Assembly: GCA_018970625.1 (NCBI GenBank)
Contig: JAGWVZ010000003.1
Span: 1-24,620 of the forward strand
Length of the DNA: 24,620 nucleotides
Direction: 5' to 3'
DNA from: Myxococcales bacterium
GTDB lineage: Bacteria > Myxococcota > Bradymonadia > REDH01
The notes under the pieces were generated by a model. That model was not told the DNA's origin, searched no databases, and worked only from the letters and a program-made list of their open reading frames with translations. Below are positions 3,362-24,620 of this stretch, piece by piece (positions within the stretch are counted from its first letter, which is position 1; every line of letters starts with the position of its first letter). The position numbers and the translations under genes are program-made.

Positions 3362-3464
3362 ACGACTGACTCCCGCCAAACTCTATATCGTCTGAGCAAC
3401 AATCTTTGATCACCGCAAAGTCGAACCTTCAAGCCAAGCTCCGTCCGACTTTGCGATCACGCTG
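3362..3464. repeat. Dispersed repeat B, copy 2 (103 bp)
   Basis: This copy aligns gap-free with 179-281 (about 19 mismatches in 103). It lies on the promoter side of the transposase relic. Its last bases supply the stop codon of the macro-HEPN gene (TGA, minus strand, 3457-3459), so the present 3' end of that gene was set by the repeat junction or the repeat includes it. Confidence 0.75.
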
Positions 3465-4707
3465 AGCCCGAAACGGGCAACGCCTCGCTCACCCGGTCGC
3501 GCCGCAACGGCCGAAGCCACGTGCATCGCCGGCCTTTGACGTCGACCGATTCGATGACGGCGGTCGCGCCGTCCACGTCGCGAATCCAGAATCGCCCTGC
3601 CTCGCACGGCCATGCTTCTGGAAGCGCCTGAGGACCAAACAGGAGCTCGATGTCTGCGACGACGTCACTGACCCTGCGCGGCTCGCGGTTGTGCGCGATG
3701 TGATTCCGGTCCTCGACAAGCCGCCTGATCGCCGCATGAAAGGTGTTCGACTTCCACGCCGCGGCACGATCGCGCGCCCAATCAGGCATGAGGCGCGCGA
3801 TGTCGCGGCCCACCTCGAGGTCGAGCGTGATGAGTTGAGCGATGGTACCGAAGCTAAGCGTTCCGGTTTGACTCTCGGGAACCTTGAACCGTCGGAAGAA
3901 CTGCTCGATCGGGGCACTCTGAAGGTCCCAAAGCGTACACAGTTCCACGAGGGTGGCGAGCTCGGCGAACTGGAGCAGCGCGTACTCCTGAAGGAGTGGG
4001 TGTGCAAGTCGCCTCGGGCGGGCGCGCAACTGCTCGACCACGGGATGCCCGCCGGCGCGCGCCAGCACGGGTTCGCCTCCGTCGACGAGGCCAGCGAGCA
4101 CCTGCGTGCCGGCACGCACGACCGACTCGAGCGTCATCTGGTCACGAACGACGAGCGCGACGTGCATTCTTGGCGCCGAAGCCCTTGCCCGCACTGCCAC
4201 GGCGGCAAAGAACAACCGCGCCGAAACCTCTGCCGGGAGCCTGAATGATCCTGTTCCGATGAGGGGGAACGCCACACGGCGACGCTCTTCTGCCTCGATC
4301 GCCGCCACCGATTCCAGAATCTTCTCCACACAACGCTCAATGTTGGCTGCATAGTACGCGACTTGATCCTCAGCGCCGTCGGTCATCCACCCGTCCGGTG
4401 CGTGGAAACCGGCGTGGTAGACTCGATGTCCACCGGGCCCCGAAGTCTCGAGCACACTCCCCTCGGGAAGCCATTGATGCCGTGTCTGCGCGTCGAGCTC
4501 CGCCTGCATGATCGGGTGCGCTCGGCGAAACTGTCCAGAGATGCTGTGCGTGCCAAGCGCGAGCCTGAACGCGGAGTTCTCGCTGTTCACGAGGTAAGTC
4601 TCAGGCGCCGCAAGCAGGTTGCCGACACGGACCTCAAGTTGGATGTTGCCAATCGCCCACGTCCAGGGTTTGGGAGCTCCTGAGTCGGCGTCAGAAGGGG
4701 CTGTCAT
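3457..4707 (-). CDS. Macrodomain-HEPN fusion protein
   Basis: From the ATG at 4707 this encodes 416 residues. Residues about 21-190 look like a macrodomain, an ADP-ribose-binding fold: GNLLAAPETYLVNSEN (NSEN in place of the common NAAN), a mid-domain Gly-rich stretch SGPGGHRVYHAGF, and the phosphate loop FPLIGTGSF (148-155). Residues about 240-360 are helical and contain EDRNHIAHN, with R334-N-x-x-x-H339 matching the R-phi-x3-H signature of HEPN ribonucleases. A basic tail (370-416) follows. The HEPN part could cleave RNA while the macrodomain senses or removes ADP-ribose-type signals (inference). An open frame extends to 4848, but that overlaps the divergent gene and lacks domain sequence. 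Neighbours are AbiE, IS relics and an immunity gene, consistent with a defence or toxin role. Confidence 0.65.
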   Translation of the reverse strand: MTAPSDADSGAPKPWTWAIGNIQLEVRVGNLLAAPETYLVNSENSAFRLALGTHSISGQFRRAHPIMQAELDAQTRHQWLPEGSVLETSGPGGHRVYHAGFHAPDGWMTDGAEDQVAYYAANIERCVEKILESVAAIEAEERRRVAFPLIGTGSFRLPAEVSARLFFAAVAVRARASAPRMHVALVVRDQMTLESVVRAGTQVLAGLVDGGEPVLARAGGHPVVEQLRARPRRLAHPLLQEYALLQFAELATLVELCTLWDLQSAPIEQFFRRFKVPESQTGTLSFGTIAQLITLDLEVGRDIARLMPDWARDRAAAWKSNTFHAAIRRLVEDRNHIAHNREPRRVSDVVADIELLFGPQALPEAWPCEAGRFWIRDVDGATAVIESVDVKGRRCTWLRPLRRDRVSEALPVSGSA

Positions 4708-4836
4708 GCAAACCGTCGTTTCGGGTGAGGCGAGCGCGCCGCTCGTCTCGCGATTGACATTGTGCGCGCCCTCGTTCAACAAAATGGCTATTGCTTGGGA
4801 AGAGACTGTGAAAAGAATCGCTGGTCCAAAACGCAC
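4708..4836. promoter_or_regulatory. Divergent intergenic region between macro-HEPN and a small ORF
   Basis: This 129-bp stretch should hold the promoters of both divergent genes. A consensus plus-strand TTGACA lies at 4754-4759, but no convincing -10 hexamer follows at 16-18 bp. The minus strand offers TTGAAC (4780-4775), likewise without a clear -10. No strong Shine-Dalgarno is seen before either chosen start, so both starts are tentative. Confidence 0.3.
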
Positions 4837-5211
4837 ATGTTCAAACAAATCCCCGACGACGCACTCACCCTCGCCGACATCCCCACGCCCGGCACGGCGT
4901 GGCGAGAGCAGCTCGAATTCTGCCTGTCGGTCGACGGGTACGCCCTGTTTCCGACAAAGCGCCTCGCCGCCTTCCGAGCAGGAAAACCGCCGAAAAAGCT
5001 CACCGAACTTCGGGCCGCGTTGTTCTATGAGCAGCGCCGCTGGCGCGACGGCTGGAATGAGCCTGCAGGCGAGGACCTCGAGTACATTCAGGGGCTAGTC
5101 GATGCCATCCGTGCACACGTTGCCCTACGCGAAGCGCTTGCTCGCATTGCGGCTCTCAGCGAGCGGGAGGCTGCGAAGCGCGCGAACCGCGTCAAAGACA
5201 TCGGCCCCTGA
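4837..5211 (+). CDS. Hypothetical protein, divergent to macro-HEPN
   Basis: The 124-residue product is not recognised. It is soluble, with no signal peptide or membrane segment. The N-terminal part (PGTAWREQLEFCLSVDGYAL) looks globular. The C-terminal third is predicted helical and charged (VDAIRAHVALREALARIAAL, then SEREAAKRANRV). The ATG at 4837 was chosen; a GTG at 4762 would add 25 residues of unlikely composition and intrude further toward the macro-HEPN start. The position, head to head with macro-HEPN, allows a partner or antitoxin role, but nothing in the sequence shows that. The next gene in the same direction starts 74 bp downstream. Confidence 0.5.
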   Translation: MFKQIPDDALTLADIPTPGTAWREQLEFCLSVDGYALFPTKRLAAFRAGKPPKKLTELRAALFYEQRRWRDGWNEPAGEDLEYIQGLVDAIRAHVALREALARIAALSEREAAKRANRVKDIGP

Positions 5212-7553: not shown

Positions 7554-7775
7554 CGCGGAACCCGTCGTGCGTCAGGGTCAGACGCGTGCCCTCGCGCTCC
7601 GGTGAGAGTTCGAAACGCACGGTGGTGTCTATGCCGCCGCCCTGCCATCGCCAACCATGACGTGCGGCGCGTCGAGTTCGAGCACTTCACAGCGCACGAC
7701 GCCATCGAACCCCGGCCCCGGCTTCGTCTGCATCGTGAACACGTGACCGACCTTCGACGAGAAGTCGTTGGGCAT
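7449..7775 (-). pseudogene. SRPBCC/AHSA1-family remnant, copy 3 (longest)
   Basis: Read on the minus strand from 7775 this gives MPNDFSSKVGHVFTMQTKPG and PGFDGVVRCEVLELDAPHVM, then, after a frameshift near 7645, FELSPEREGTRLTLTHDGF, then a short deletion near 7555, then the repeat-A tail ending EVEVALPS-stop. These are the middle and end of an AHSA1/SRPBCC protein: the WxMPNDF region, the GHxF strand, GFDGxVxCEVLE, GTRLTLTHxGF and the last helix. The N-terminal 30 or so residues are missing and two frame disruptions make it non-functional. The segment 7629-7775 is read in frame as the C-terminus of the helicase ORF. Confidence 0.75.
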
Positions 7776-9155
7776 TGAGCCGGCGCGCGAGGGCATCGGC
7801 GTTGCAGTCAGGCCCAGCAGCTCGGCCGGTCGCAACAGGTCCAGAAGCCTTGTGTAGGTCGGAGCGGCCGCGTGATGAAACTCGTCGACAATGACCACAT
7901 CGAAGTGGTCGGCGTTGAGGTGTTCAAGACCGTTGGCCGCGAGGCTCTGAACTGACGCAAACACATGCTCGAAGCGCTCTGGGCGATTGCCACCCACCCA
8001 GAGCTCGCCAAACGCAGGGTCGCGCAACACATGACGAAAGGTCGCCATGCTGCGCTCCAGAATCTCGTAGCGATGCGCCACGAAGAGCAGCCGTGCGCGC
8101 GGCAGCCGTGAACGCAGCCTGCGGTAGTCTTCGGCCGCCATCACGGTCTTGCCGGTACCCGTTGCGGCGACGAGCAGATTCCGGTGCCGCCCCTGATCAC
8201 GTGCGAGTTCGATTTGCTCGAGCAGCCGCTCCTGAAACGGGTCCAGACGCACCTCGACCGGACTCAACGCCAACACAGTCGGACTGCTGGACCGCGCGTC
8301 CGACGCCCGCCGGGCCTCGCGAAATCGCTGCAACTCGAACGGCTCGAAATCACCGCTGCACCAGTAAGCATCAAACACAGAGACCATCTTCTTCACGATG
8401 TCCGGATTGCGCGCACCCGAGACGCGCACATTCCATTCGCGCCCCGTCTCGGTGCCCGATCGGGTCAGATTCGACGAGCCAACGTACGCCGTGTGAAACC
8501 CGCCCGGTCGATGAAAAATCCAGGCCTTTGCGTGTAGTCGCGTGGCTTCGTTGTCGTAGGAAACACGCACGTCAGCGCCGAGCTTCGCAAGCTGCTCCAG
8601 CGCCTCGGGCTCGGTGGTGCCGGTGAACGTCGTCGTCAGCACCCGCAACACCCGCCCTTCATCTCGGCAGTGCCGCAGCAACGCGTCCTGCAGCGGCCGA
8701 ATACCGCTTCGCACAATAAACGCCATCACCAGATCGACCTGCTCGGCCGACGCAATCTCCGCGCGCAACTGATGCAGCACCCGCGGTTCACGCCGGGCAT
8801 TGGTCAGCAGCACACTGTCGAGCAACGGAATCTCGGGGCGCTCTACGCGTGCGGGCTCCCCATCGGGCCGCCACCCTGCAATCTCGGTCAAAACTCGCAG
8901 CGGCTCGGGCAACACGCTGTCGCGCAGCCAGCTGTCGTTGGCCCCGTCTCCGCCGAGCAGCTCCAGCACCCGGTTGGCGATAATGCGCGCGCGCTCCACC
9001 CGCTCGCGATGGTCGACCATTCGCAGCGACCTCGAAATCGCCTGCGCCACATGCAGCGCCACGCGGTCCACCACATCTTCGGCGTTGGGCGCTTCGAAAC
9101 AGGGGACCAGCTCTCGTTCAAGCGCCGCCAGCTCACGGTCCAGGTCAGCGGTCAC
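7629..9155 (-). pseudogene. Truncated PLD-nuclease/DEAD helicase fused to SRPBCC fragment
   Basis: The 508-codon frame starts at GTG 9155. Residues about 105-270 form a phospholipase-D-type nuclease unit with LHAKAWIF (His208, Lys210) and VGSSNLTRSGT. Residues about 300-455 are the first RecA-like domain of a superfamily 2 helicase, with ATGTGKT (331-337), the Walker B variant VIVDEFHH (421-428) and motif III-like LLGLTATP (447-453). Proteins of this kind (DUF3427-type helicases with an N-terminal PLD domain) are normally about twice as long, with a second RecA domain. Here the frame jumps at about residue 455-461 into SRPBCC sequence (MPNDF onward) and ends after a frameshift at DGRAAA. The helicase cannot be complete; the PLD unit could still fold. 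Confidence 0.75.
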
Positions 9156-12680: not shown

Positions 12681-15600
12681 TCACAGGCACTCTCCACGCG
12701 GGAAGAAGTCCTGATAGCCGTATCGAACGCGAAGACGGATATCCTCAAGACCGTCCCAGTTAATGTCGCCGTTTTCGCCTGTCGTGGGGTCGATCAGGAT
12801 GGTGTACGACGAAGCCAGCGGCAGTCCGCTCAGGGTTCGATTGACGCCCTGCGTGAACTCGTCACTGGTGAAGCGATTGACCCCTGCGGCGACCGAGATG
12901 GCTCGCGACGGGCTGCGGAAGGTGGTCACGTCGCTGAACGCTGTGGCACCCGGATCGAGCCCGTTTACGTAGTCCACGAGGTCTGGCTGGCAAGAACGCA
13001 GGCGGCTCGTGCCGTCATACACGATGCTCACCGTCGGCACCGCCTCGCCGAGGTTGTTGCCGACCAGCTGCACGTCGAATGCGTCGATCCGCGCGTTGCA
13101 ACTCGCCGCAAGGTTTGCAAACTCGTTGACGTCGAACGTCACCGTCGCTGACCACAAGTCGTCTCGTGCAGCGAGCTCGAGCCCACTGGTCGCGCTGCCC
13201 AACCGGACACGCCGGTCGACATTCACTTCGCCGCGTTGCATCGAGGCGATGAACAGTTCGGCGGGCTCGTACCGTTCGTTTCGTCCGTCGTTGAACCGTG
13301 GTTCGCTGACCCCGAGATAGCGCGAGACGCTGACGTCGACAATCTCAAGGCTGGTGCTCCCACCGCAGACGTTCTGCAGACGAGACATTTCGGCAGCGAT
13401 CGTCTCGAGCTGGAAGGTGTTGCGCGCCAACAGGATCTGGATCCTCTGGTCCATGAATGGCCGTACCGCATAGTATTCCATGGCGACCAGCCACTCCATC
13501 AGCGATGCCTTGGCTCGCTCCAGTCGCGCCTCGGCTCGAGAGAGGCTGTTCGCCCAGGCGAAGATGATCGCCGGGCTGCCCAGCAGAGAGTTCACGTTGC
13601 TCGCCTGGCTCTGCAGCTGCGCGAGGCGCGCGCTTTGAAGCCCCGCGCGCTCGACGACGCGGGCGTATTCGAGCACGCGCTGCTGCGTCTGCAGATGTGC
13701 CTGGTTGATGCGAACGCTGAGGTCAGCCAGCTCGAGCGTCGCCCGGAACGCCGCGTCGATGCGGTCATTCAGTTCGATGCGGTCGCGAGCATACGCCAGT
13801 TCGGCCTCAGTGCGCGCCTCGAGGGCCGCGATCAGCCGGTCAAGTTGGAACTCGCGGATTTGAGTGCTCGTCAGGTCGACGTCCATCCGCGCTCGCAGGT
13901 CGTCGATGGTGTTCTGCACCACGAGGTCGTCAGCGATGTCCTGCTCGCGCAGGTTGGCCAGCTGCGCGTCACGCAGCGCGCGTGCCTGTTCCACCTGTGT
14001 CCGGAGCTCCTCAGCCCCCACTTCGAGCGCGAGGGCGGCGGTGCGACCGACGGTCTGTGCGACGGCAGCCTTCATATACAGAGCGCCGCGCAATGGCGCG
14101 AAGGCGTCCGTCGCCGCCCCAACGACTCGGGGCTGTCCCTCGATCGCCGCCTCGGCGAAAAGCTGGATGGAGTCGCCCACAAGGGTCGCTGCGTCCGCGG
14201 TACGTCGCAATCCAAACGCGGCGCGCAGTTGGGAGAAATCACTCGCCACCCCGTCAAGCCGCACCTGGTTCCACGCCGCGGCGTCGTCGGCCGCATCCTG
14301 GGCGAGGAGGCCACGGTTCTCGTTCTGTTCTTCGATGTTGCTGATTACCTCCGCCAGCGAGGCTTCGGCCGCCGCCTCGGACTCGTCGATAATCGTTTTA
14401 ACCTCATTGACGGCCGCCAGCCGCGAGAGGTTCCACGCCTCGATCTGCGCGGCAAATGCACCGGCGTTGGCTTCGGCGCGCGCCGCACGCTGCTCGGCCG
14501 CGCCGTATTCCTGCTCGGCCAGGGTCACTCCCTCCAGCGATGTCAGCACCGCGAGGTATGCCGACGCCGCTTCTGACGCCAGCGTACCGTCCACGGTCTC
14601 TTCTGCACCATACGAGAAACCGCACTCGCCAGCGCCGACGCGGATCTCGCATCCCGCTACGTCAGCCGCCACATCCGACCGTGTGCAGTCGCGTGGCAGA
14701 CCACACAGCTCGATGAGCGTATCGACGACCTCGTCGATCTGGTTATTCAACTCGTTCTGGACCAGCGTCGCGTTCAGCTCTCGCTCCGATGTCTCGGCGA
14801 TGATGTCCTCGACCGCAGCGGCAGCGTCGGCGATGGCTTCGGTTGCGTCGTCTTCGAGGTCAGCAAGCAGGGTGTGGTTGCTGGCGTTGGGGTCCAGTGA
14901 CCGCGACACCACCACCTCCGCGTCCCGCGCATAGACGAGCGCACTGAACGGCAGAGCCAGCTTGCGCTGCTCGCGTAGCAGCGCGCCAAATCCACCGCTG
15001 AAGGTCGCATTCGCAAACCCGGCGCCTGCGCTCTGATTCAGGTTCGCCGCCGCGCCGGCGAGGATGTAGAGGTCGCGCGCACGGGCGCCCACCAAAGCCA
15101 GGTCCGCTCGCCGATCGGCGGCCGCGATGTGCAGGCTGTTCCACCGCTGCGCAGCGATAACCAGTGTCTCCATAGACGCGCGCCACGACTGGCTCATCTC
15201 GAACAACAGCTGCTTGCGCTCCTCGATTGACGCCTCTGCTGTCACCTGACGCGACAACAGCCCCAGCGCCACTGGGTCGTACTGCCCGGCGACAACGTCG
15301 AGGTGCACGTCAAGCACCGTCGTTCGCCAAACGTCGAGCTGGCCGGCGGTGAAGTCGCGCAACACGCTCGTGACGAATTCCGGCAGGTTGTTCAGCTCCA
15401 GCCACTGCAGCCGAAGGTCGGCGTCCGTACGAAACGCGCCCAGCTGTCGGCCGAGGAACGCCTCGCGACTGAGACGACCAAACAGGTCCACCAACGCCTC
15501 TCCGTCGCGGAGCGCTTCCTCCGGTTCCGTCCACGTGCGCGCCACCAGCTCGCGGGCACACAAGACCTCCGGCTGCGGGCGGCACAGCCCGTCGACCCCG

Positions 15601-17108
15601 GCGGCGCAGGCCTGCATGAACTCGTCGAAGCTCTGGTCTCCCGGCGTCACGCCATCGTCGTTGAAGAACTCGCGCAGCAAAGCCGCCGTCGTGTCGCCCG
15701 CGAGGGCCGTCTCGCCGATGGCCGCAGCGCACGAAGCGCGCGCGGCGGCGTCAGCGCCAACGAACTCGTCGACCGACCCCACGCCGTCACAGGTGAGCAC
15801 CTCACCGTCGTCCGTAACGAACGTCAGCGGTGCGCCGGCCTCGTCGACGAACAGGTCGGTGAGATCGGCACACGTCTCCAGTGCCGGCAGCGGTTGCGTG
15901 TCTTCACGGCGCGCGTCATCGGCGCTGACAGCCGCCTCTGCGTCCGCGGGCGACAGGGCCGCGTCGCCGACGCGACGCAACTCCAGGTCGCCCTCGAATA
16001 CGACGACCGCCGGCCGCACTGTGCCACCGACGGTGCGCTCGTCGTACAATCCCGTCCATCGATCTGTCATCGAGCCGAACATCTCGCCGGATGGTAGAAG
16101 CTCGAGTTCGAACCGAAGCGTCCGCTGCGGTACAACCCCGTCGGCCGACGCCAGGAACGACCCCTCGTCGAACGGGAAGTCGTGGCGCGTCGTCGCCACC
16201 CACCGATCGATCAGCGCGTCGTACTCCAGAGCACGAGCCGTGAACGCCGCGCCGTCGTCCCCGGGCGTCGGCGAGAAGAACGCACTCGGCCCTGTCGGCA
16301 GCACAATCCAGACGGCTTCAGCATCGTCCAGCCGGGCGCCTGCCGGTGACGTCACCAGGTCGACCTGGATCGGTAACTCCACAGAACCGAAGCGCGCCAT
16401 GCGGACGCTGCCGCCGTACTCACCGGCCGGGGTTGGCGCCGGCACCAGCGTGGTCGTTAGCGACCCCGCATCAGTCGTCACCCGGCAGTCGATCAGCCCG
16501 AATCGACTCTGGTCGAGCGTCCGGCGGTCAATCGGAACTTCAATCACCGCCTCGCCATCGCGCACCGGAGCGCGGCGCAGCAGGCGGGAATTAACCGCCC
16601 CCTCGGAGTCCTCCACGATGTAGCGTAACTCGCCGGGTAGCGCCCCGCCGGACAAGGACTCGACCCGGACGCCGAGCAGCACTCTCTCATCGGTCGAACC
16701 CACGTACGACTGCGAGGCCGGACCGTCTATGATCCGAAGGTCACTCAACGCATCGCGCGCGTCGATGTCTTTCTGGCCCCCGCCGCAGCGCCCGTCCTCC
16801 GTGCACGTCGCACCATCGGCACACGGCGTGTCGGCGTCGCACTCCGCCACGCAATACCCGGCGAAGCAGTGCTCGCCAGCCGTGCAGTCGAAGTCGATCT
16901 GACAGTAGCCCAGCGAAGGCACCGAAAGCGCCTCGATCGGCGACGCCGTGATCGCGCTGTTGCCAGCGTCCTCGCCGGCATCGGGCTCATCGGGCGAACC
17001 GCTGCTGCCGTCGTCTCCGCACCCTGCGGCCCCGACGAGCAGCCCGGCAAGCACAGACGCCCATCTCGGCGCGAACAATCGATTGGTCACTCTGGTAATG
17101 CGAGCCAT
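12681..17108 (-). CDS. Giant lipoprotein with helical core and TcA-like C-terminus (paralogue 2)
   Basis: From the ATG at 17108 this gives 1475 residues. A signal peptide ends in lipobox LVGAAGC (Cys30), followed by an acidic linker (GDDGSSGSPDEPDAGEDAG). A Cys-rich module spans about 69-108 (CQIDFDCTAG, EHCFAGYCVAEC). Next comes a beta-rich region with DRWTGLYDERTVGG, then about 700 mostly helical residues (about 550-1250) holding the signature CGLPRDCT ... VGAGECGF, and a C-terminal beta domain (about 1250-1475) ending NWDGLEDIRLRVRYGYQDFF. That ending resembles the close of Tc-toxin TcA proteins (inference by eye). Gly at +2 after the lipid Cys fits outer-membrane sorting. The start overlaps the stop of the upstream paralogue as TAATG, so the two are translationally coupled. 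An in-frame extension to 17186 has no signal sequence and was rejected. Function unknown. Confidence 0.85.
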   Translation of the reverse strand: MARITRVTNRLFAPRWASVLAGLLVGAAGCGDDGSSGSPDEPDAGEDAGNSAITASPIEALSVPSLGYCQIDFDCTAGEHCFAGYCVAECDADTPCADGATCTEDGRCGGGQKDIDARDALSDLRIIDGPASQSYVGSTDERVLLGVRVESLSGGALPGELRYIVEDSEGAVNSRLLRRAPVRDGEAVIEVPIDRRTLDQSRFGLIDCRVTTDAGSLTTTLVPAPTPAGEYGGSVRMARFGSVELPIQVDLVTSPAGARLDDAEAVWIVLPTGPSAFFSPTPGDDGAAFTARALEYDALIDRWVATTRHDFPFDEGSFLASADGVVPQRTLRFELELLPSGEMFGSMTDRWTGLYDERTVGGTVRPAVVVFEGDLELRRVGDAALSPADAEAAVSADDARREDTQPLPALETCADLTDLFVDEAGAPLTFVTDDGEVLTCDGVGSVDEFVGADAAARASCAAAIGETALAGDTTAALLREFFNDDGVTPGDQSFDEFMQACAAGVDGLCRPQPEVLCARELVARTWTEPEEALRDGEALVDLFGRLSREAFLGRQLGAFRTDADLRLQWLELNNLPEFVTSVLRDFTAGQLDVWRTTVLDVHLDVVAGQYDPVALGLLSRQVTAEASIEERKQLLFEMSQSWRASMETLVIAAQRWNSLHIAAADRRADLALVGARARDLYILAGAAANLNQSAGAGFANATFSGGFGALLREQRKLALPFSALVYARDAEVVVSRSLDPNASNHTLLADLEDDATEAIADAAAAVEDIIAETSERELNATLVQNELNNQIDEVVDTLIELCGLPRDCTRSDVAADVAGCEIRVGAGECGFSYGAEETVDGTLASEAASAYLAVLTSLEGVTLAEQEYGAAEQRAARAEANAGAFAAQIEAWNLSRLAAVNEVKTIIDESEAAAEASLAEVISNIEEQNENRGLLAQDAADDAAAWNQVRLDGVASDFSQLRAAFGLRRTADAATLVGDSIQLFAEAAIEGQPRVVGAATDAFAPLRGALYMKAAVAQTVGRTAALALEVGAEELRTQVEQARALRDAQLANLREQDIADDLVVQNTIDDLRARMDVDLTSTQIREFQLDRLIAALEARTEAELAYARDRIELNDRIDAAFRATLELADLSVRINQAHLQTQQRVLEYARVVERAGLQSARLAQLQSQASNVNSLLGSPAIIFAWANSLSRAEARLERAKASLMEWLVAMEYYAVRPFMDQRIQILLARNTFQLETIAAEMSRLQNVCGGSTSLEIVDVSVSRYLGVSEPRFNDGRNERYEPAELFIASMQRGEVNVDRRVRLGSATSGLELAARDDLWSATVTFDVNEFANLAASCNARIDAFDVQLVGNNLGEAVPTVSIVYDGTSRLRSCQPDLVDYVNGLDPGATAFSDVTTFRSPSRAISVAAGVNRFTSDEFTQGVNRTLSGLPLASSYTILIDPTTGENGDINWDGLEDIRLRVRYGYQDFFPRGECL

Positions 17109-20100
17109 TAGCGGCACTCCGAACGAGGGAAAGGATCCTGATAGGTGAAGTTGAAGCGCACGAGCACGTCTTCGAGTTCGGACCATGCGACGCCCTGGTT
17201 GTCCCCGCGGTCACGGTCGATCAGCACGACGTATTCGGCCGCGAATGGCAGCCCTCGGAGTGTCTCGTTGCCGTTCTCGAGGTCCGGAGGTGACGCGAAG
17301 TCGCCCACGTCCGAGAGCGGCCCGACCACCCGGGGCTGCGCCTCGAATCGGGTCACCAGACCAAAGGACGTCGCGTCCGGCCCCACGCTGTCGAGGTAAT
17401 CTTGCAGATCCGGTTGGCACGACCGTAACTCGCTCGCACCCGAGTGGACCATCTGTACCGTCGGCCGCACGTCCACGCCCACATCACCAACCACGGCCAG
17501 ATCGACCGAGTACAGTCGCGCATTGCAGTTCGTGGCGAGGTTGGGGAACCGCTCGATATCGATGTCGATCGTGCCCGCCCACAGACTTGGCAGCGACCAG
17601 AGGTCGGCGCCAAACAGCGTGCTGCCGAGACGGACACGACGCCCCACCGCTACGTCGCCTCGTTGCAGCGCTGCGCGGAACGCCTCCGCAGCCGGCACCA
17701 CGTCGCCGCTGACCGGATCGCGTTGCTCCACGTCATAGCCCATCGCTTCGGCGAGGCTCACGGTCACCGAAGCGTAGTTCTGCTGCCCGCCACATTCGCC
17801 CTGAAGCCGTCGCATCTGCTCCGCGATATCCTCGAACTGGTATGGATTCTGGGCGAGCAGCAGCTGGATACGGAGGTCTACGAAGGGACGCACCGCGTAG
17901 TACTCCAGCGCCACGAGCCAGTCCCACAGCGCCGAGCGCGCCCGACTGAGCGACCCCTCGGCACGTTCGAGGCGATTGGCCCACATAAAGACCGAAGACG
18001 GACTGCCAATCAGCAGATTGATCTGCCCCCGCTGTTCGATGAGCTGATCACGGCGCGCGGCGAGCAGCTCGCTGCGTACCGTGAGCTGACCGTAGGCAAG
18101 CTCTGCACGATCAATGGCCAGAAACGCCTGTCCCAGTCGCGTATTGAGGGCCGATGCGTCCAGAATCAGGCCCCAGGTCTCGTCACGCCGGTCGGCGAGC
18201 GACTGCAGGTCCCGTTGGAACGCCAGACGAGCCTCTGACGCCCGTAGCGCGGCTGCAACCTTACGGCCGAAGCCCCACTCCTGCACCTGTGCATCGTTCA
18301 GGTCGATTCTCGCCTGGTCTTCCAGTAGTGCGATCTCGTTCGTCAGCACGAGATCGTCGCCGAGGTCTACATCCGCCAGATTCTGCAATTCATAGCCTCG
18401 TAGCGCCCGGTCCGTGGTGACCAGGGCCTGCAGCACCGTCGAGCCGAGGCTCGCGCTCACTGTGACCCCCTTCGCAATCCTCTTGGGCCATGTTGTAGCC
18501 TGAAGCGCTGCCCATCGACTCGCCCGATACACCGAGTCGTTAACAGCCCCGGTCATGGTTGGCAGGCCGTCCGCACCCTGCCGCAGATTGTTGGCCACCG
18601 TATTCCCCACGGCGGCCGCGGTCTTTGCCAGGGCGAGCAGCGAGATGGAAGCCGCAACTTGCGCGAAGTCTTGCTGGCGGCCGTCGACGGCGATCGAGTT
18701 CCACGCCGCGGCGTCGGCGGCCGCATCCGCGGCCAGAGCGTCTTGATTCTCGATGATCACGGCGATCCGATCGGCGATCGCTGCGAGCTCTGCGGTATAT
18801 TCGCTACGCCGCAGAGCGATGAGCTCGGTGATCGTACTGATCTCGTCCTGGCGAATTGTGTTCATGGCCGCGACCTCGGCGGCGAACGCGTCGGTGCTGG
18901 CAATCGACTGTGAGATGCGTTGGTCCAACGTCTGTATCGCAGTCTGCGCCGCCGTCACCTGAAGCTCAGCCTCGATGATCGACAGCAGTGCAGAGCCCGC
19001 TTCACCGCCCGGTCCAACAACCCCGTCTTCATCCGTCACGAAGCCGCACTTGCCAGCGCCCACAGGCAGCTCACACCCTTCGGCACCTTCGTCGATCTGC
19101 TGCAGAGTACATCCGACAGGCTGGCCGCAAAGCTCGATCAACTCGTCGCGCAGCGCGTCAATCTCATTGCGCAGTCGATTCTCCAACTGCGTTCGGTTCA
19201 GCGCGTCCTCAGACGATTCTGCGATCACTTCGCTGACTCGCGCGCCGGCCAGCGTTACGGCTGCGTCCGCCGCGGTTTCGAGGCTGCCCAGCAGCGTATC
19301 CGCGTTCTCGCTTGCGACGAGCGACCGGTTCACCACCACCTCGATGTCACGCGCGATCAGCACCTCGTCGAACGGCAGGAGCAGCGTCTGCAGAGACCTT
19401 TGCAGGTTTCCGAACCCGCCACCGAACGCGGCGTTCGCGAAGCCGCTGCCGGCGCGTTGGTTCATCCCTGCGAGCAGACCCGCCGCCACGTACAGGTCGA
19501 GCGCGCGACTGACGACGCGCCCGCTCGCCTCGGCACGATCGTCCGTCCCACGCAGCAGGACGTTCCATCGATCCGCGCCCAGCACCAGCGATGTCATCGA
19601 CGCCCGCCAGCTCTGCGTCAGTTCGAACAGTACCTGCTGCCGGGCTTCTTCGGCATCCCCAGCCGTCACCTGGCGGTTGAACATCCCAAGAGACGCTGGC
19701 GTCATCTGGCCGAACACCACGTCAAGGTGCACGTCGAGGACCGCCGCGGACCACGTCTCAAGCAACTCGCCGATGTAGCCTCCAAGCGTCTCCGTACCAT
19801 CGGCCAGCGATGCCGACACGAAGTCCGGGTAGTCACTCGACTGAAGCCAATCCAGTCGCAGCGACGCGTCCTGCTGATACGCGCCCAGTTGAGGCCCGAT
19901 AAAGGCCTCTCGCGACAACCGCGTCCACCGATCTACCAGCGCCGCTGATGAGGCCAGTTCTGCGACCGGTGTCACATAGGCCCACGCCGTCAGGTCCCGC
20001 GCACACAGCACGGCGTCTGACGGACGGCAGAAGCCCGCTTCGCCGGCCGCGCAGGCTTCGATAAACTCCGCAAACGAGAGCCCATCGACCCCGCCGCCGC

Positions 20101-21577
20101 CATCGAAATACGACTGCAGAGCGTCGGCCGTCGTCGCGCCGCTGAGCGCGGCATCCGCCACCGCCAGCGCGCATGACGCCGCCTCGTCAGGCTCCACATC
20201 CGCCAGCTCCCCGAGCCCGAGAACAAGTGGCTCGCCGTCGGCACCCACGCAGTCCTCATCGCCCTGCACCAGCGGCGCGCCGCTCGCATCCGAGAAGATG
20301 GCGTCCGTGCAGGCTGCCGCGATGTCCATCCCAAGCACCAGCTCAGGGCGCAGCTCCAGCGTCGATGCGTCGTCCTGGCCTGCCTCGATGTCGCCAGCCT
20401 CCCGAAGCACCCCGTCGCCGAGCCGCACCCCTTCGAAGTCGCCGCCAAACACGGTTACGCCAGGCGTTGCGACGCCACCAACCGTGCGATCATCATACAA
20501 GCCTGTCCAGCGGTCGGAAAACGTACCGAACACTGCGCCATCTTCGTCGAATCGGACCTCCAACCGAATGGTCCGTTGGGGCGACCGCACGCCTGTCCGC
20601 TCGAGGAAGCTGCCATCGGGCCCATCGAAGTCGTGTCGCCACGTCCCGACCCACGCATCCAGCAGGGCATCGTACTCCAGCGCGCGAACTGCGTACCCGG
20701 ATTCTGCGGCATCGAGCGGGCGAAAGAGGTGATCCTCCGAGGTCGACAGCGCCATCCACACCGTCTCGGCGTCGTCGACTGTCGCGCCCGGGGGCTCTGT
20801 TGCAAGCTCGAACGACATCGGCAGCGTCACCGAACCAAAGTTGGCGACGCGTGCACCTGCGGTCCAGCGTCCCTCGACGGGTGCCTGCTGACTGACGTTG
20901 AACGTCTGCTGCCCCAGCGGGGTGATCAGCTCGACGCTCACGTCCGATGCTTCCAGTTCCCCCACCGTATCGAAACCGACCGGGACCTCTACGTCGAATA
21001 CGCCATCGGCGCTCACCGCACCCGAGTATCGCCGTGTCGGATCCAGCAGCCCCGCCGAATCACGAAGCCGATAATCCAACGAATCCAGACCTCGGTCGTC
21101 GGACTCGATACGCAGGCGAACGCCGAAGCTCTCAGCGCCCGGCCGCAATCGAATCCCCTGGGTCGGGAACTCGACAATCCGGCCGCTGGGGCGCGCAGCC
21201 TCATCGTCTACGCCCTTGTTCGACGACACGCACCGGCCTCGTTCGTCGCACGACGCTCCGCCCGCACACGCCAGCTCAGCGTCACACGATCGCACACACG
21301 CGTCCTCGAAACAGTGCAGACCTGCCGCACAGTCGATGTCGATGGAACACCCGGCTTCAGACGCAATCGCAACCGGTTCACGGGGCAGCGCGACGAGCTC
21401 GCCTTCGCCATCGACGCCTGAGTCCACGCCGGTATCGACTCCTGCATCGGCAATATCGCCACCTCCGCCGCAACCGCCGAGCAGGGTGACCAGCGCGACG
21501 AAAACGAGGCCAACCGTCGCTGACAGCGTCGGAGCACCCGGTTCAAGGCGGTCTGAGGTTGTGTGTTGTCCTCGCAC
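17108..21577 (-). CDS. Giant lipoprotein with helical core and TcA-like C-terminus (paralogue 1)
   Basis: From the GTG at 21577 this gives 1489 residues. Hydrophobic VGLVFVALVTLLGGC ends in lipobox Cys36, followed by Asp/Gly-rich VDTGVDSGVDGEGE. The Cys-rich module lies at about 77-116. The beta-rich region carries DRWTGLYDDRTVGG, and the helical core (about 557-1260) carries CGQPVGCT ... VGAGKCGF. The C-terminal beta domain ends SELEDVLVRFNFTYQDPFPR with a near-terminal Cys, as in paralogue 2. The two align over their whole length. The GTG was chosen because it places the lipobox at a normal distance; GAGAG lies nine bases upstream. The frame stays open to 21862 but that extension has no conserved sequence. 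The protein is probably an outer-membrane or surface lipoprotein acting with its paralogue. Function unknown. Confidence 0.85.
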   Translation of the reverse strand: MRGQHTTSDRLEPGAPTLSATVGLVFVALVTLLGGCGGGGDIADAGVDTGVDSGVDGEGELVALPREPVAIASEAGCSIDIDCAAGLHCFEDACVRSCDAELACAGGASCDERGRCVSSNKGVDDEAARPSGRIVEFPTQGIRLRPGAESFGVRLRIESDDRGLDSLDYRLRDSAGLLDPTRRYSGAVSADGVFDVEVPVGFDTVGELEASDVSVELITPLGQQTFNVSQQAPVEGRWTAGARVANFGSVTLPMSFELATEPPGATVDDAETVWMALSTSEDHLFRPLDAAESGYAVRALEYDALLDAWVGTWRHDFDGPDGSFLERTGVRSPQRTIRLEVRFDEDGAVFGTFSDRWTGLYDDRTVGGVATPGVTVFGGDFEGVRLGDGVLREAGDIEAGQDDASTLELRPELVLGMDIAAACTDAIFSDASGAPLVQGDEDCVGADGEPLVLGLGELADVEPDEAASCALAVADAALSGATTADALQSYFDGGGGVDGLSFAEFIEACAAGEAGFCRPSDAVLCARDLTAWAYVTPVAELASSAALVDRWTRLSREAFIGPQLGAYQQDASLRLDWLQSSDYPDFVSASLADGTETLGGYIGELLETWSAAVLDVHLDVVFGQMTPASLGMFNRQVTAGDAEEARQQVLFELTQSWRASMTSLVLGADRWNVLLRGTDDRAEASGRVVSRALDLYVAAGLLAGMNQRAGSGFANAAFGGGFGNLQRSLQTLLLPFDEVLIARDIEVVVNRSLVASENADTLLGSLETAADAAVTLAGARVSEVIAESSEDALNRTQLENRLRNEIDALRDELIELCGQPVGCTLQQIDEGAEGCELPVGAGKCGFVTDEDGVVGPGGEAGSALLSIIEAELQVTAAQTAIQTLDQRISQSIASTDAFAAEVAAMNTIRQDEISTITELIALRRSEYTAELAAIADRIAVIIENQDALAADAAADAAAWNSIAVDGRQQDFAQVAASISLLALAKTAAAVGNTVANNLRQGADGLPTMTGAVNDSVYRASRWAALQATTWPKRIAKGVTVSASLGSTVLQALVTTDRALRGYELQNLADVDLGDDLVLTNEIALLEDQARIDLNDAQVQEWGFGRKVAAALRASEARLAFQRDLQSLADRRDETWGLILDASALNTRLGQAFLAIDRAELAYGQLTVRSELLAARRDQLIEQRGQINLLIGSPSSVFMWANRLERAEGSLSRARSALWDWLVALEYYAVRPFVDLRIQLLLAQNPYQFEDIAEQMRRLQGECGGQQNYASVTVSLAEAMGYDVEQRDPVSGDVVPAAEAFRAALQRGDVAVGRRVRLGSTLFGADLWSLPSLWAGTIDIDIERFPNLATNCNARLYSVDLAVVGDVGVDVRPTVQMVHSGASELRSCQPDLQDYLDSVGPDATSFGLVTRFEAQPRVVGPLSDVGDFASPPDLENGNETLRGLPFAAEYVVLIDRDRGDNQGVAWSELEDVLVRFNFTYQDPFPRSECR

Positions 21578-22167: not shown

Positions 22168-24620
22168 TCAGCCTCTGACGCACGCAACCCCCGTACGGGT
22201 CGACGCGTCGTAGGACTCACAACTCTGCCCAGCCGGACCACTCTGGCCTGCGCCGGATTGGAGAACCCTGACTCCATCATTTCCGCCTTGACCGCCGACA
22301 CCACCAACGCCCCCCGCACCACCGGGAGCAGCGACCGTCGGCTCGCGAACTTCGATGCCCGCGTCGACGCCCGACGGGAGCGTTGCACCAAAGGTCAGCA
22401 CGCCAATGAACCATCCGCCAGCGCCCCCTGACCCGCCGGCACCGCCGGCACCACCGCCACCGTATCCTCCCTGGCCCGCGGCGCCGCGCAACGAATCCAG
22501 GAAAGCCCTGGACGGACCGTCGGTGTCGATTCGGCCCCCGTCCGGAGCGGACACATAAGGCTGTGCGCCCCGATTCCACGCTGTGTTGATCGGGCTTGCA
22601 GTCGCCAGGGAGTCCGACGAGCCACCGTCGCCACCGTTCTGGCCGGATCCGCCATTGCCGCCCGCACCTCCAGAGCCAGCGCTCACGACGACCCCGTCCA
22701 CGACGGGGAAATCCAACCCGCGGACCGCAAGGCCGATGCGCGTGCCGCCTGCGCCGCCTCCACCGCCGCCAGAACCGCCGCATCCGCCGGTCGCGCCGCT
22801 CGATCCATAGCTGCCGGCAGACCAGTACTCATAATAGCAGTCGGAGCAGCAGCAGTAGCCCGGGTCACGAAATGAGTCCCTCACATTGAACGACGGCGAG
22901 CCACCACCACCGCCGCCCGAGCCGCCTGTATGCCCCCACAATCCGTCAGGACCGTCGGTCGCAACCCAAGGCCTCGACACCGGGTTCAGCGCCGCGCTCG
23001 TCGCTGGTCGTACCGCTGCGTTGGAGCCGGCCCCCCCCAGGGCATGCCGCTGTTGGTTGGAGTTTGTGTACGAACATCCGACATTGCTGATGAAACTCCC
23101 GCCGGCCGAGCCAGTCCAGGTGAATCGGAGACCCGACTGGGTGCAATAGTCGGTCATAAAGGCACCTGTATAAGCGCGATTGCCTCTGAGCCCGTTGGCG
23201 GTTCCGGTGCCTCCGAACCCGTCAAAACCATCAGATGAGGGGAACAGCGCCGCAGAGAGCCGGTCCGAACCCCTTGTTTGCCTCGCGTCGGTGTCACCCG
23301 GGGCCCCGCCCACGCCACCATAGAGAGTTACTAGGGGACGATCGTCATATTCGCACAAGAGAACAGGCGAACTGGGCGAAAAACCGAACTGATCATTCGG
23401 GGGCACCTGTCCATCCACGCCGGACGCCGCCGGGCCGGTCGACGCCCGACCCGCCGCGCCGGGCTGGCCCGAGCCCGCGTTCAACGACACCTCGGATAGC
23501 TGCAGCCGGTCGCAGTCGCCCTCGCATGCCAGCGCTGCCACGGGGCCTTCGGACGCCGCCACGTCACCGATGGTGATCGTTGTACGGTCCATCCGAATGT
23601 CGTTCGCATTGTTCACAAGGACCGCTGCGGTGTAGTCCGCGGAGCGGATACAACGGACATCACAGAATGTTGGAACAAACGTCAGATTTGACGTTCCGGT
23701 TTGCACCTCGAACCGTGCGTCATAGCCCCCGAAGATACCGTAGTCGCCCGAGAGCACGGCCTGGCGCCCGACGACATGGTTACCCGACACGAGAATCTGC
23801 GTTACGCTGTTGCCGCGAGACTCGGCGAGGTCGAGTGCCACGCCAAAGGTCGCCACAGGGCGTTCCCTCGTGCCTGGATTCGCGTCCGATCCCACCCCGC
23901 TTAGCACGAAGATCGCGGACTCTTCCCTGCCATCCATACCGTCGCAGTTCGTGTCGAGCCCATCACCAGGCCAGTCGATCTCCCCGCGCGGCCTGACCGT
24001 CAGACGGCTAACCCCCGCCGAGTCACTCCCCACTGACACCGACGAGTCCTTCACATAGGTGAACGTTACGACGTGTAATCCAACCTGCAGATCCGCAATG
24101 AACGTCCCGCTGTTGCTCCCCGAGTACCTGGCCTGCTCTGCGCCATCGACCGAGATGATCAGCCAGTCATAGTCCAGTTCCGAGCTGACCGTGTAATCCG
24201 CTTCCACGCGGGCATCGGTTTCCAGGTTGAGCGTCAACGTCAGCGTGCTCGATTCGTTGTCTCCGATGAGCGCCGATTGTGCGAAGTTGAGGGGGCCGAC
24301 GAACCATGACGGCTCAGAGGTTGAGAAGGGCTCGACGATGCCTGCGCTCCAGTCGCTTTCAAAGCTGAACCCAGGCGACTCGGTCGATTCATTGTATATG
24401 CACGATAGCTCGCGCGCGGCGCTGTCGCATGCCAGCAGGCCCGTGCGGCAGATCCCCAGCCGATCACTCTCTTCCGGAGCCGTGCACGCACCACCGGTTG
24501 CACCTATGAGCCCTGTCGCATCCGGGCGGGACCACACGGGCACCTCGGCGCCGTCGTCGTCCACGCTCGCGTTGTCAGCGATTCCGTCGCAGTCGTTGTC
24601 GATGCCGTCGCAGACCTCGG
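22168..24620 (-). CDS. Secreted MopE-like, beta-helix, Gly-rich protein (partial, 5' end outside window)
   Basis: The frame is open from the window end to TGA at 22168, over 810 codons, so the start is missing. At the edge it reads VCDGIDNDCDGIADN, a MopE-type Asp/Cys repeat known from secreted proteins and thought to bind calcium; a second one, DGLDTNCDGMDG, follows further on. Then a DUF1565/pectin-lyase-like beta-helix entry (SDANPGTRERPVATFGVAL, later GIFGGYDARF). The last third is Gly-rich (GGAGGSGGAGG type) and interrupted by a Cys/Tyr cluster GYCCCSDCYYEYW. An N-terminal signal peptide is expected outside the window. A surface adhesin or matrix role is inference. It lies upstream of the two giant lipoproteins on the same strand and may belong to the same surface programme. 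Confidence 0.8.
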   Translation of the reverse strand, partial: EVCDGIDNDCDGIADNASVDDDGAEVPVWSRPDATGLIGATGGACTAPEESDRLGICRTGLLACDSAARELSCIYNESTESPGFSFESDWSAGIVEPFSTSEPSWFVGPLNFAQSALIGDNESSTLTLTLNLETDARVEADYTVSSELDYDWLIISVDGAEQARYSGSNSGTFIADLQVGLHVVTFTYVKDSSVSVGSDSAGVSRLTVRPRGEIDWPGDGLDTNCDGMDGREESAIFVLSGVGSDANPGTRERPVATFGVALDLAESRGNSVTQILVSGNHVVGRQAVLSGDYGIFGGYDARFEVQTGTSNLTFVPTFCDVRCIRSADYTAAVLVNNANDIRMDRTTITIGDVAASEGPVAALACEGDCDRLQLSEVSLNAGSGQPGAAGRASTGPAASGVDGQVPPNDQFGFSPSSPVLLCEYDDRPLVTLYGGVGGAPGDTDARQTRGSDRLSAALFPSSDGFDGFGGTGTANGLRGNRAYTGAFMTDYCTQSGLRFTWTGSAGGSFISNVGCSYTNSNQQRHALGGAGSNAAVRPATSAALNPVSRPWVATDGPDGLWGHTGGSGGGGGGSPSFNVRDSFRDPGYCCCSDCYYEYWSAGSYGSSGATGGCGGSGGGGGGAGGTRIGLAVRGLDFPVVDGVVVSAGSGGAGGNGGSGQNGGDGGSSDSLATASPINTAWNRGAQPYVSAPDGGRIDTDGPSRAFLDSLRGAAGQGGYGGGGAGGAGGSGGAGGWFIGVLTFGATLPSGVDAGIEVREPTVAAPGGAGGVGGVGGQGGNDGVRVLQSGAGQSGPAGQSCESYDASTRTGVACVRG

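What the first reader, a model, noticed from the sequence alone, without database searches (positions are those of the whole stretch)
12681..21577. Tandem giant lipoproteins with TcA-like architecture
Two full-length paralogues in one transcript each combine a lipid anchor, a Cys-rich module, a beta-rich region, a very long helical segment and a C-terminal beta domain. The ending pattern (R-x-L-x-G-L-P-F/L-A, then W-x-x-L-E-D-x-x-L/V-R) recalls the end of TcA toxin subunits, whose helical pore domain precedes a TcB-binding domain. A lipid-anchored pair of this type would be a new kind of surface device, perhaps for prey or host contact.
Basis: partly seen in the sequence, partly recalled or inferred. 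Interest (0 to 1): 0.75.

Follow-up and report, generated by a model that had tools for sequence, protein, structure and literature searches.

The report
Lipid-anchored relatives of Tc-toxin injection pore
Two neighbouring genes encode very large fat-anchored proteins whose predicted shape matches the syringe-like pore of insect-killing Tc toxins, in a little-studied bacterial group that includes predators of other bacteria.

Summary
In detail: two 41%-identical giant lipoproteins (P0002 then P0001, minus strand), coupled by a TAATG overlap, belong to an unannotated family of about 1,450-1,500 aa (105 hits).

The TcA idea survives a strong test. In Foldseek, all 22 PDB matches at E <= 1e-3 to a model of residues 553-1501 are TcA subunits, and the end domain overlays the TcB-binding domain. 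Sequence profiles, including PF18276, do not see this.

Gene neighbours support it independently: in three places a relative is followed directly by a TcB-like gene.

The usual partner is different: a Cys-rich lipoprotein with MopE motifs, adjacent in 15 of 16 loci seen on both sides (one by hand), and found in 14 of 15 family-positive and 0 of 173 other genomes drawn.

Most likely this is a membrane-anchored, disulfide-rich, TcA-like translocation pore; a single-contig genome carries it without recognisable TcB. Function is inferred, not shown. The window's pair is one old duplication; most relatives seen are single genes.

The parts
17108..21577 (-). P0002, upstream TcA-like lipoprotein (GTG start; lipid Cys at residue 36)
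   Evidence: translation, start read; 41% identical to P0001; upstream-paralogue clade
12681..17108 (-). P0001, downstream TcA-like lipoprotein (ATG at 17108; residue numbers below use the longer frame from 17186, lipid Cys = 56)
   Evidence: downstream-paralogue clade
17106..17110 (-). TAATG stop/start overlap coupling P0002 to P0001
16782..16919 (-). P0001 Cys-rich module (residues 90-135)
   Evidence: Cys 95, 101, 107, 112, 116, 122, 128, 134 nearly invariant in 74 members
15969..16748 (-). P0001 beta region (residues 147-406): Ig/macroglobulin-like domain, then a barrel weakly like factor H binding protein
14703..15503 (-). P0001 helical bundle (residues 562-828), place of the last part of the TcA shell
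   Evidence: model; three VIA rows extend from model residue 9, 12 or 19 against TcA 1757-1798, but with rmsd 48-54 A
14574..14702 (-). P0001 mostly unstructured segment (residues 829-871) with invariant Cys 834, 846, 855 and Cys 828 just before it; linker candidate
   Evidence: linker equivalence is inference
13581..14573 (-). P0001 giant helical hairpin (residues 872-1202), pore-domain candidate
   Evidence: model helices 320-387, 390-464, 478-549, 560-650; TcA matches
14031..14087 (-). P0001 hydrophobic stretch (residues 1034-1052) beside the hairpin turn, membrane-tip candidate
   Evidence: most hydrophobic family-mean 19-mer after the signal peptide; per member 44 of 74 have their helical maximum in the tip zone, P0001 and P0002 not; model confidence at the turn is low (blocks of pLDDT 55-57)
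12711..13358 (-). P0001 C-terminal beta domain (residues 1277-1492), TcB-binding-domain fold
22168..24618 (-). P0003, probable C-terminal part of the Cys-rich MopE partner lipoprotein; 5' end cut off by the window edge
   Evidence: MopE match below Pfam's cut-off (22.7 of 27 bits, E 1.2e-4); similar to the C-terminal part of the L002 partner, E 3.6e-15; the conserved partner domain itself would lie outside the window

Best explanation
These are extracytoplasmic, lipid-anchored relatives of the pore-forming A subunit of Tc (ABC) toxins.

Anatomy, from sequence or model: a lipobox; a Cys-rich module and Ig/barrel domains; a helical bundle; a mostly unstructured Cys-rich segment; a giant helical hairpin with a hydrophobic turn region in the family mean; and a TcB-binding-type beta domain.

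Inferred mechanism: the protein goes through Sec and the lipoprotein pathway and sits on the cell surface or on vesicles. It oligomerises like TcA, and on contact pushes its hairpin tip into a neighbouring membrane to make a channel.

In one branch a signal-peptide-bearing TcB-like RHS cocoon encoded next door would dock on the beta domain and feed its C-terminal toxin through the pore. In the main branch, to which the window's pair belongs, the regular companion is instead the Cys-rich MopE lipoprotein, which could act as receptor/adhesin or cap. In the window the pore would be a mixed oligomer of two old paralogues.
Confidence: 0.6

Rival explanations
1. The TcA fold is real, but the protein is now a structural or adhesive stalk: the long hairpin and end domain hold the Cys-rich MopE partner away from the cell and no longer make a pore or pass cargo.
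For: The regular partner is a Cys-rich lipoprotein, not TcB. G016 shows no RHS or TcB match. The hydrophobic tip is modest and not universal.
Against: One branch keeps TcB-like genes directly next door. The family-mean hydrophobic maximum still sits at the turn.
Confidence: 0.25
2. Only the end domain is related to TcA; the long helices match TcA because any long antiparallel helices do.
Against: Foldseek separates the TcA chains from every other long-helix protein (weakest TcA 3.3e-7, next 2.1e-3) and aligns 604 to 998 columns. The order bundle, hairpin, beta domain is the same as in TcA.
Confidence: 0.1
3. No relation to TcA: a lineage-specific surface lipoprotein whose model happens to resemble TcA.
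For: No sequence-profile hit in Pfam, NCBIfam or PDB.
Against: Two independent lines, fold and TcB neighbours, point to the same known system. Of 9 PF12256 places in 20 genomes, 3 lie directly downstream of a family member.
Confidence: 0.05

Closest known systems
TcA subunit of Tc/ABC toxins (TcdA1, XptA2, YenA2)
   Same: Predicted helical hairpin followed by a C-terminal TcB-binding-type beta domain, in the same order. YenA2 has pore 862-1170 (309 residues), a 49-residue linker and binding domain 1171-1343 (173) (PMC6486591, passages); here 331, 43 and 216 residues.
   Different: Lipobox, Cys-rich, N-terminal TcA parts replaced by Cys-rich, Ig-like and barrel domains; about 1,450 aa, against over 2,200 for most single-chain TcA; no PF18276 match; usual companion is not TcB.
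Canonical Tc loci in the same phylum (G156)
   Same: G156 carries three dispersed family members and also PF18276 proteins with TcB-like genes elsewhere.
   Different: Its PF18276 and PF12256 matches lie at 4.24-4.33 Mb, away from its family members (3.78, 5.61 and 7.78 Mb), so the two systems coexist.
Bacterial teneurin-like proteins of Myxococcota (PMC13018210; section 6 and passages seen)
   Same: Predicted SEC/SPII-targeted surface RHS/YD polymorphic toxins, in over 20% of Myxococcota; [quoted passage not shown]
   Different: They are the cocoon and toxin, not a TcA-like pore. A link to the present family is speculation.

Membership tests
TcA subunit of Tc toxins | C-terminal TcB-binding beta domain | tested here: met
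TcA subunit of Tc toxins | Alpha pore-forming domain of extended antiparallel helices | tested here: met
   By predicted fold only; a channel is not shown
TcA subunit of Tc toxins | Sequence match to PF18276 (TcA_TcB_BD) | tested here: not met
   0 of 29 C-terminal domains at E <= 10; whole P0001 and P0002 no match. In a genome-wide scan one member (G004:C188) had a sub-threshold match of its last residues, E 0.93
TcA subunit of Tc toxins | Neuraminidase-like pore-closing domain | tested here: inconclusive
   Not among the listed matches of the N-terminal model
TcA subunit of Tc toxins | Hydrophobic pore-forming loops at the tip | tested here: inconclusive
   Family mean yes; per member 44 of 74, not P0001 or P0002
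TcA subunit of Tc toxins | Linker between shell and pore, with trefoil knot (PMC11435725, passages) | not tested
   Candidate segment 829-871; knot analysis needs coordinates, which scripts could not read
TcA subunit of Tc toxins | Homopentamer and pore in membranes | not testable with these tools
   Needs complex prediction or experiment
TcA subunit of Tc toxins | Acts with co-encoded TcB-TcC | tested here: inconclusive
   TcB-like gene directly downstream in 3 places; none in the window; PF12256 in 6 of 20 positive genomes
TcB subunit (downstream genes in L026, L061, L062) | SpvB, FG-GAP, TcdB_midN and RHS domains in one protein | tested here: met
   All four above Pfam cut-offs in each of the three; L026 and L062 frames are cut by contig ends
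Bacterial lipoprotein | Signal peptide with lipobox Cys | tested here: met
   65 of 74 members by a simple pattern; lipidation not tested

The most novel reading that the evidence does not exclude
A two-lipoprotein, RHS-free contact-injection or perforation machine. A TcA-derived, disulfide-stapled, membrane-anchored pore (in this lineage a hetero-oligomer of two old paralogues) works obligately with a Cys-rich MopE lipoprotein instead of a TcB-TcC cocoon. It could serve contact-dependent killing in Bradymonadia and other Myxococcota, with the TcB-linked branch as the surviving bridge to classical Tc toxins.
Probability: 0.3. Interest if true: 0.9.

Novelty: new variant of a known kind. Interest (0 to 1): 0.77.

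Why it matters
Tc toxins are known as translocation syringes released as large complexes (recalled). A family of about 100 lipid-anchored, Cys-rich relatives without any Pfam domain would extend that architecture to surface display and, at least in G016, to a genome without recognisable TcB. Named relatives include Persicimonas caeni and Lujinxingia litoralis. Bradymonabacteria appear to kill by contact, with an inactive supernatant; type IV pili and a type III apparatus are the suspects so far (PMC7460792, passages). The family and its partner are further concrete candidates that a gene deletion could test.

Tried and rejected
Sequence proof of TcA kinship: Pfam and NCBIfam on P0001 and P0002, PDB profile searches with the family and with its end domain and PF18276 on 29 end domains all failed. 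Profile-profile comparison with two PF18276 proteins of G156 gave E 0.018 in the expected register against 0.12 for the reversed control: suggestive, not proof. An hmmsearch of that two-sequence profile against members gave only scattered weak hits, best E 0.068. The first run included an antisense frame by mistake and is discarded.

The partner's conserved domain has no PDB match at E <= 0.01. Eight of the partner-type proteins given to Pfam showed MopE motifs, two of them with other C-terminal domains as well (Big_5/beta-helix was in one, FGE-sulfatase in another), and three given to NCBIfam had none.

The pair as the general unit was rejected: of 32 loci only L001, L004 and L010 show two members side by side, though many of the 32 are short fragments.

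Literature: seven searches. In the listings seen (10 of 18 papers) no title or abstract start told of a lipid-anchored TcA-like protein or of TcA-TcB in Myxococcota. The two papers that hold 'TcA-like' and 'lipoprotein' were not opened. Only open-licence PMC papers were searched. Papers opened, passages or one section only: PMC13018210, PMC11435725, PMC6486591, PMC7460792.

Limits: one search scored at most 3 candidates per genome (E <= 1e-30) and at most 9 (E <= 1e-15), so counts are minima; only the first genomes without a match are listed, so that both calls drew the same 188 is judged from equal size and shared handles. The genomes are not phylogenetically independent and many are drafts. 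In G103, G111 and G138 the partner-type match lies on another contig than the member. Loci L014, L016 and L020 show over 5 kb downstream without a partner (upstream not seen). A1 used 74 of 107 available proteins, picked by hand to thin near-duplicates. The partner profile was built from 18 proteins found beside members, so hits at those loci are partly by construction (of the 15 adjacent cases, L001, L007, L061 and L064 were outside the seed); A5 uses 10 of the 18. The tree is a FastTree with midpoint root.

Full report
WHAT IS THERE. The minus strand carries P0002 (17108-21577, GTG start) and P0001 (12681-17108, ATG start), joined by a TAATG overlap. They are 41% identical over almost their whole length. 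Both have a lipobox-type end. Upstream on the same strand, about 590 bases away and running off the window, is P0003 with a MopE-type motif (below Pfam's cut-off) and a Gly-rich tail. Downstream lies a convergent AMP-binding enzyme.

THE FAMILY. A search with P0001 residues 560-1501 gave 105 proteins at E <= 1e-3 (7,989 candidates scored). Most are about 1,420-1,530 aa and none carries a precomputed Pfam domain. Of the 10 with an organism in their name, 9 are Myxococcota or Deltaproteobacteria and 1 is labelled a Flavobacteriales MAG. A 74-member alignment shows invariant Cys and a conserved C-terminus. A scan of GTDB-species contigs gave 32 loci. In a draw of 188 genomes of one phylum, 15 had a member at E <= 1e-30.

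SEQUENCE-LEVEL TEST. Negative or marginal: PF18276 in 0 of 29 end domains, no PDB profile hit, hhalign E 0.018 against 0.12 reversed. So this is not filed as a PF18276 member.

HYDROPHOBIC TIP. In the family mean, the most hydrophobic 19-mer after the signal peptide is residues 1034-1052, beside the hairpin turn. Per member, 44 of 74 have the maximum of the helical region in that zone, which covers 71 of 488 positions. P0001 and P0002 do not; among the TcB-linked members L062 does not either.

TcB NEIGHBOURS. In 20 family-positive genomes PF12256 occurs at 9 places in 6 genomes. Three of the 9 lie directly downstream of a member on the same strand (L026, L061, L062); two of these are in one genome, G004. 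These proteins hold SpvB, FG-GAP, TcdB_midN and RHS domains and begin with signal-like stretches (by eye). Their TcA-like neighbours form one clade with P0105-P0108 (support 0.979). G016, one contig, has a member and a partner but no PF12256, PF03534 or PF05593; G094, one contig, lacks the first two and has two weak RHS repeats.

THE PARTNER. Large Cys-rich lipoproteins with MopE motifs share a conserved domain of about 400 residues. Of 43 loci tabulated, 35 have 900 bases or more on at least one side, and 24 of these had the partner next door by the script's rule; L011, whose partner frame overlaps too far for that rule, makes 25. Of the 16 seen on both sides, 15 have it, counting L011 (not L027, where the member frame is itself a fragment); several of the 16 come from the same genomes. 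At genome level a partner-type domain is in 14 of 188, all 14 among the 15 family-positive genomes, and in none of the other 173 (Fisher p 3e-20). G156 has three dispersed members, each with its own partner beside it. P0003 looks like the C-terminal part of such a partner, so the window probably reads partner, P0002, P0001.

THE PAIR. P0002 falls in a clade of 15 (support 0.992), P0001 in a sister clade of 16 (0.908). L001's two copies (the upstream one as its longest open piece) split in the same way, as do P0019/P0012 and P0040/P0007, which share their longest-contig lengths. So the pair looks like one old duplication kept in order. A second, separate pairing involves P0081/P0056, P0071/P0064 and P0094/P0080 (shared contig lengths; clades of 6 and 7, supports 1.0 and 0.997); one L010 copy falls in the first of these clades, its other copy was not in the tree.

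READING. A lipid-anchored TcA-like pore is the best reading. Shown: lipobox pattern, paralogy, predicted fold similarity, TcB neighbours in one branch, a recurrent partner. Inferred: oligomer, surface position, pore, contact use. Bradymonabacteria appear to kill by contact and their supernatant is inactive (PMC7460792, passages), which suits an anchored weapon. The relatives P0053 and P0070 are from Persicimonas caeni and Lujinxingia litoralis; that these belong to Bradymonadales is recalled.

Noticed in passing
L061:4946-11419 (minus): TcB-like RHS protein of 2,158 aa with a hydrophobic stretch and a lipobox-like motif before the RHS core end, then a unique C-terminal region of about 190 aa that looks like a polymorphic-toxin tip (by eye).
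   Followed up: partly
G156 contig C1, 4.24-4.33 Mb: Canonical PF18276 proteins and TcB-like genes coexist with three dispersed lipid-anchored TcA-like genes in one genome.
   Followed up: partly
L071:3338-11218 (minus): A 2,627-aa frame directly upstream of a TcB-like gene, with no Pfam match above cut-off and no family-profile hit.
   Followed up: partly
L001:3779-8293 and L008:8998-13545: Family members with one in-frame stop each; pseudogenes or assembly errors. Left as separate pieces.
   Followed up: no
L025:13428-22325 and L019:3-2555: Partner-type frame of 2,966 aa with FGE-sulfatase-like domains; a 79%-identical piece lies upstream of the member in L019.
   Followed up: no
G179:C117:3031-6228: Three matches to the partner's conserved domain in one 2,322-aa frame.
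   Followed up: no
window 7629-9155 (minus): PLD-like plus ResIII/DEAD helicase protein, possibly a defence or restriction-like gene.
   Followed up: no
window 3460-5094 (minus): Frame with a macro-domain match just above cut-off (24.2 against 22 bits).
   Followed up: no
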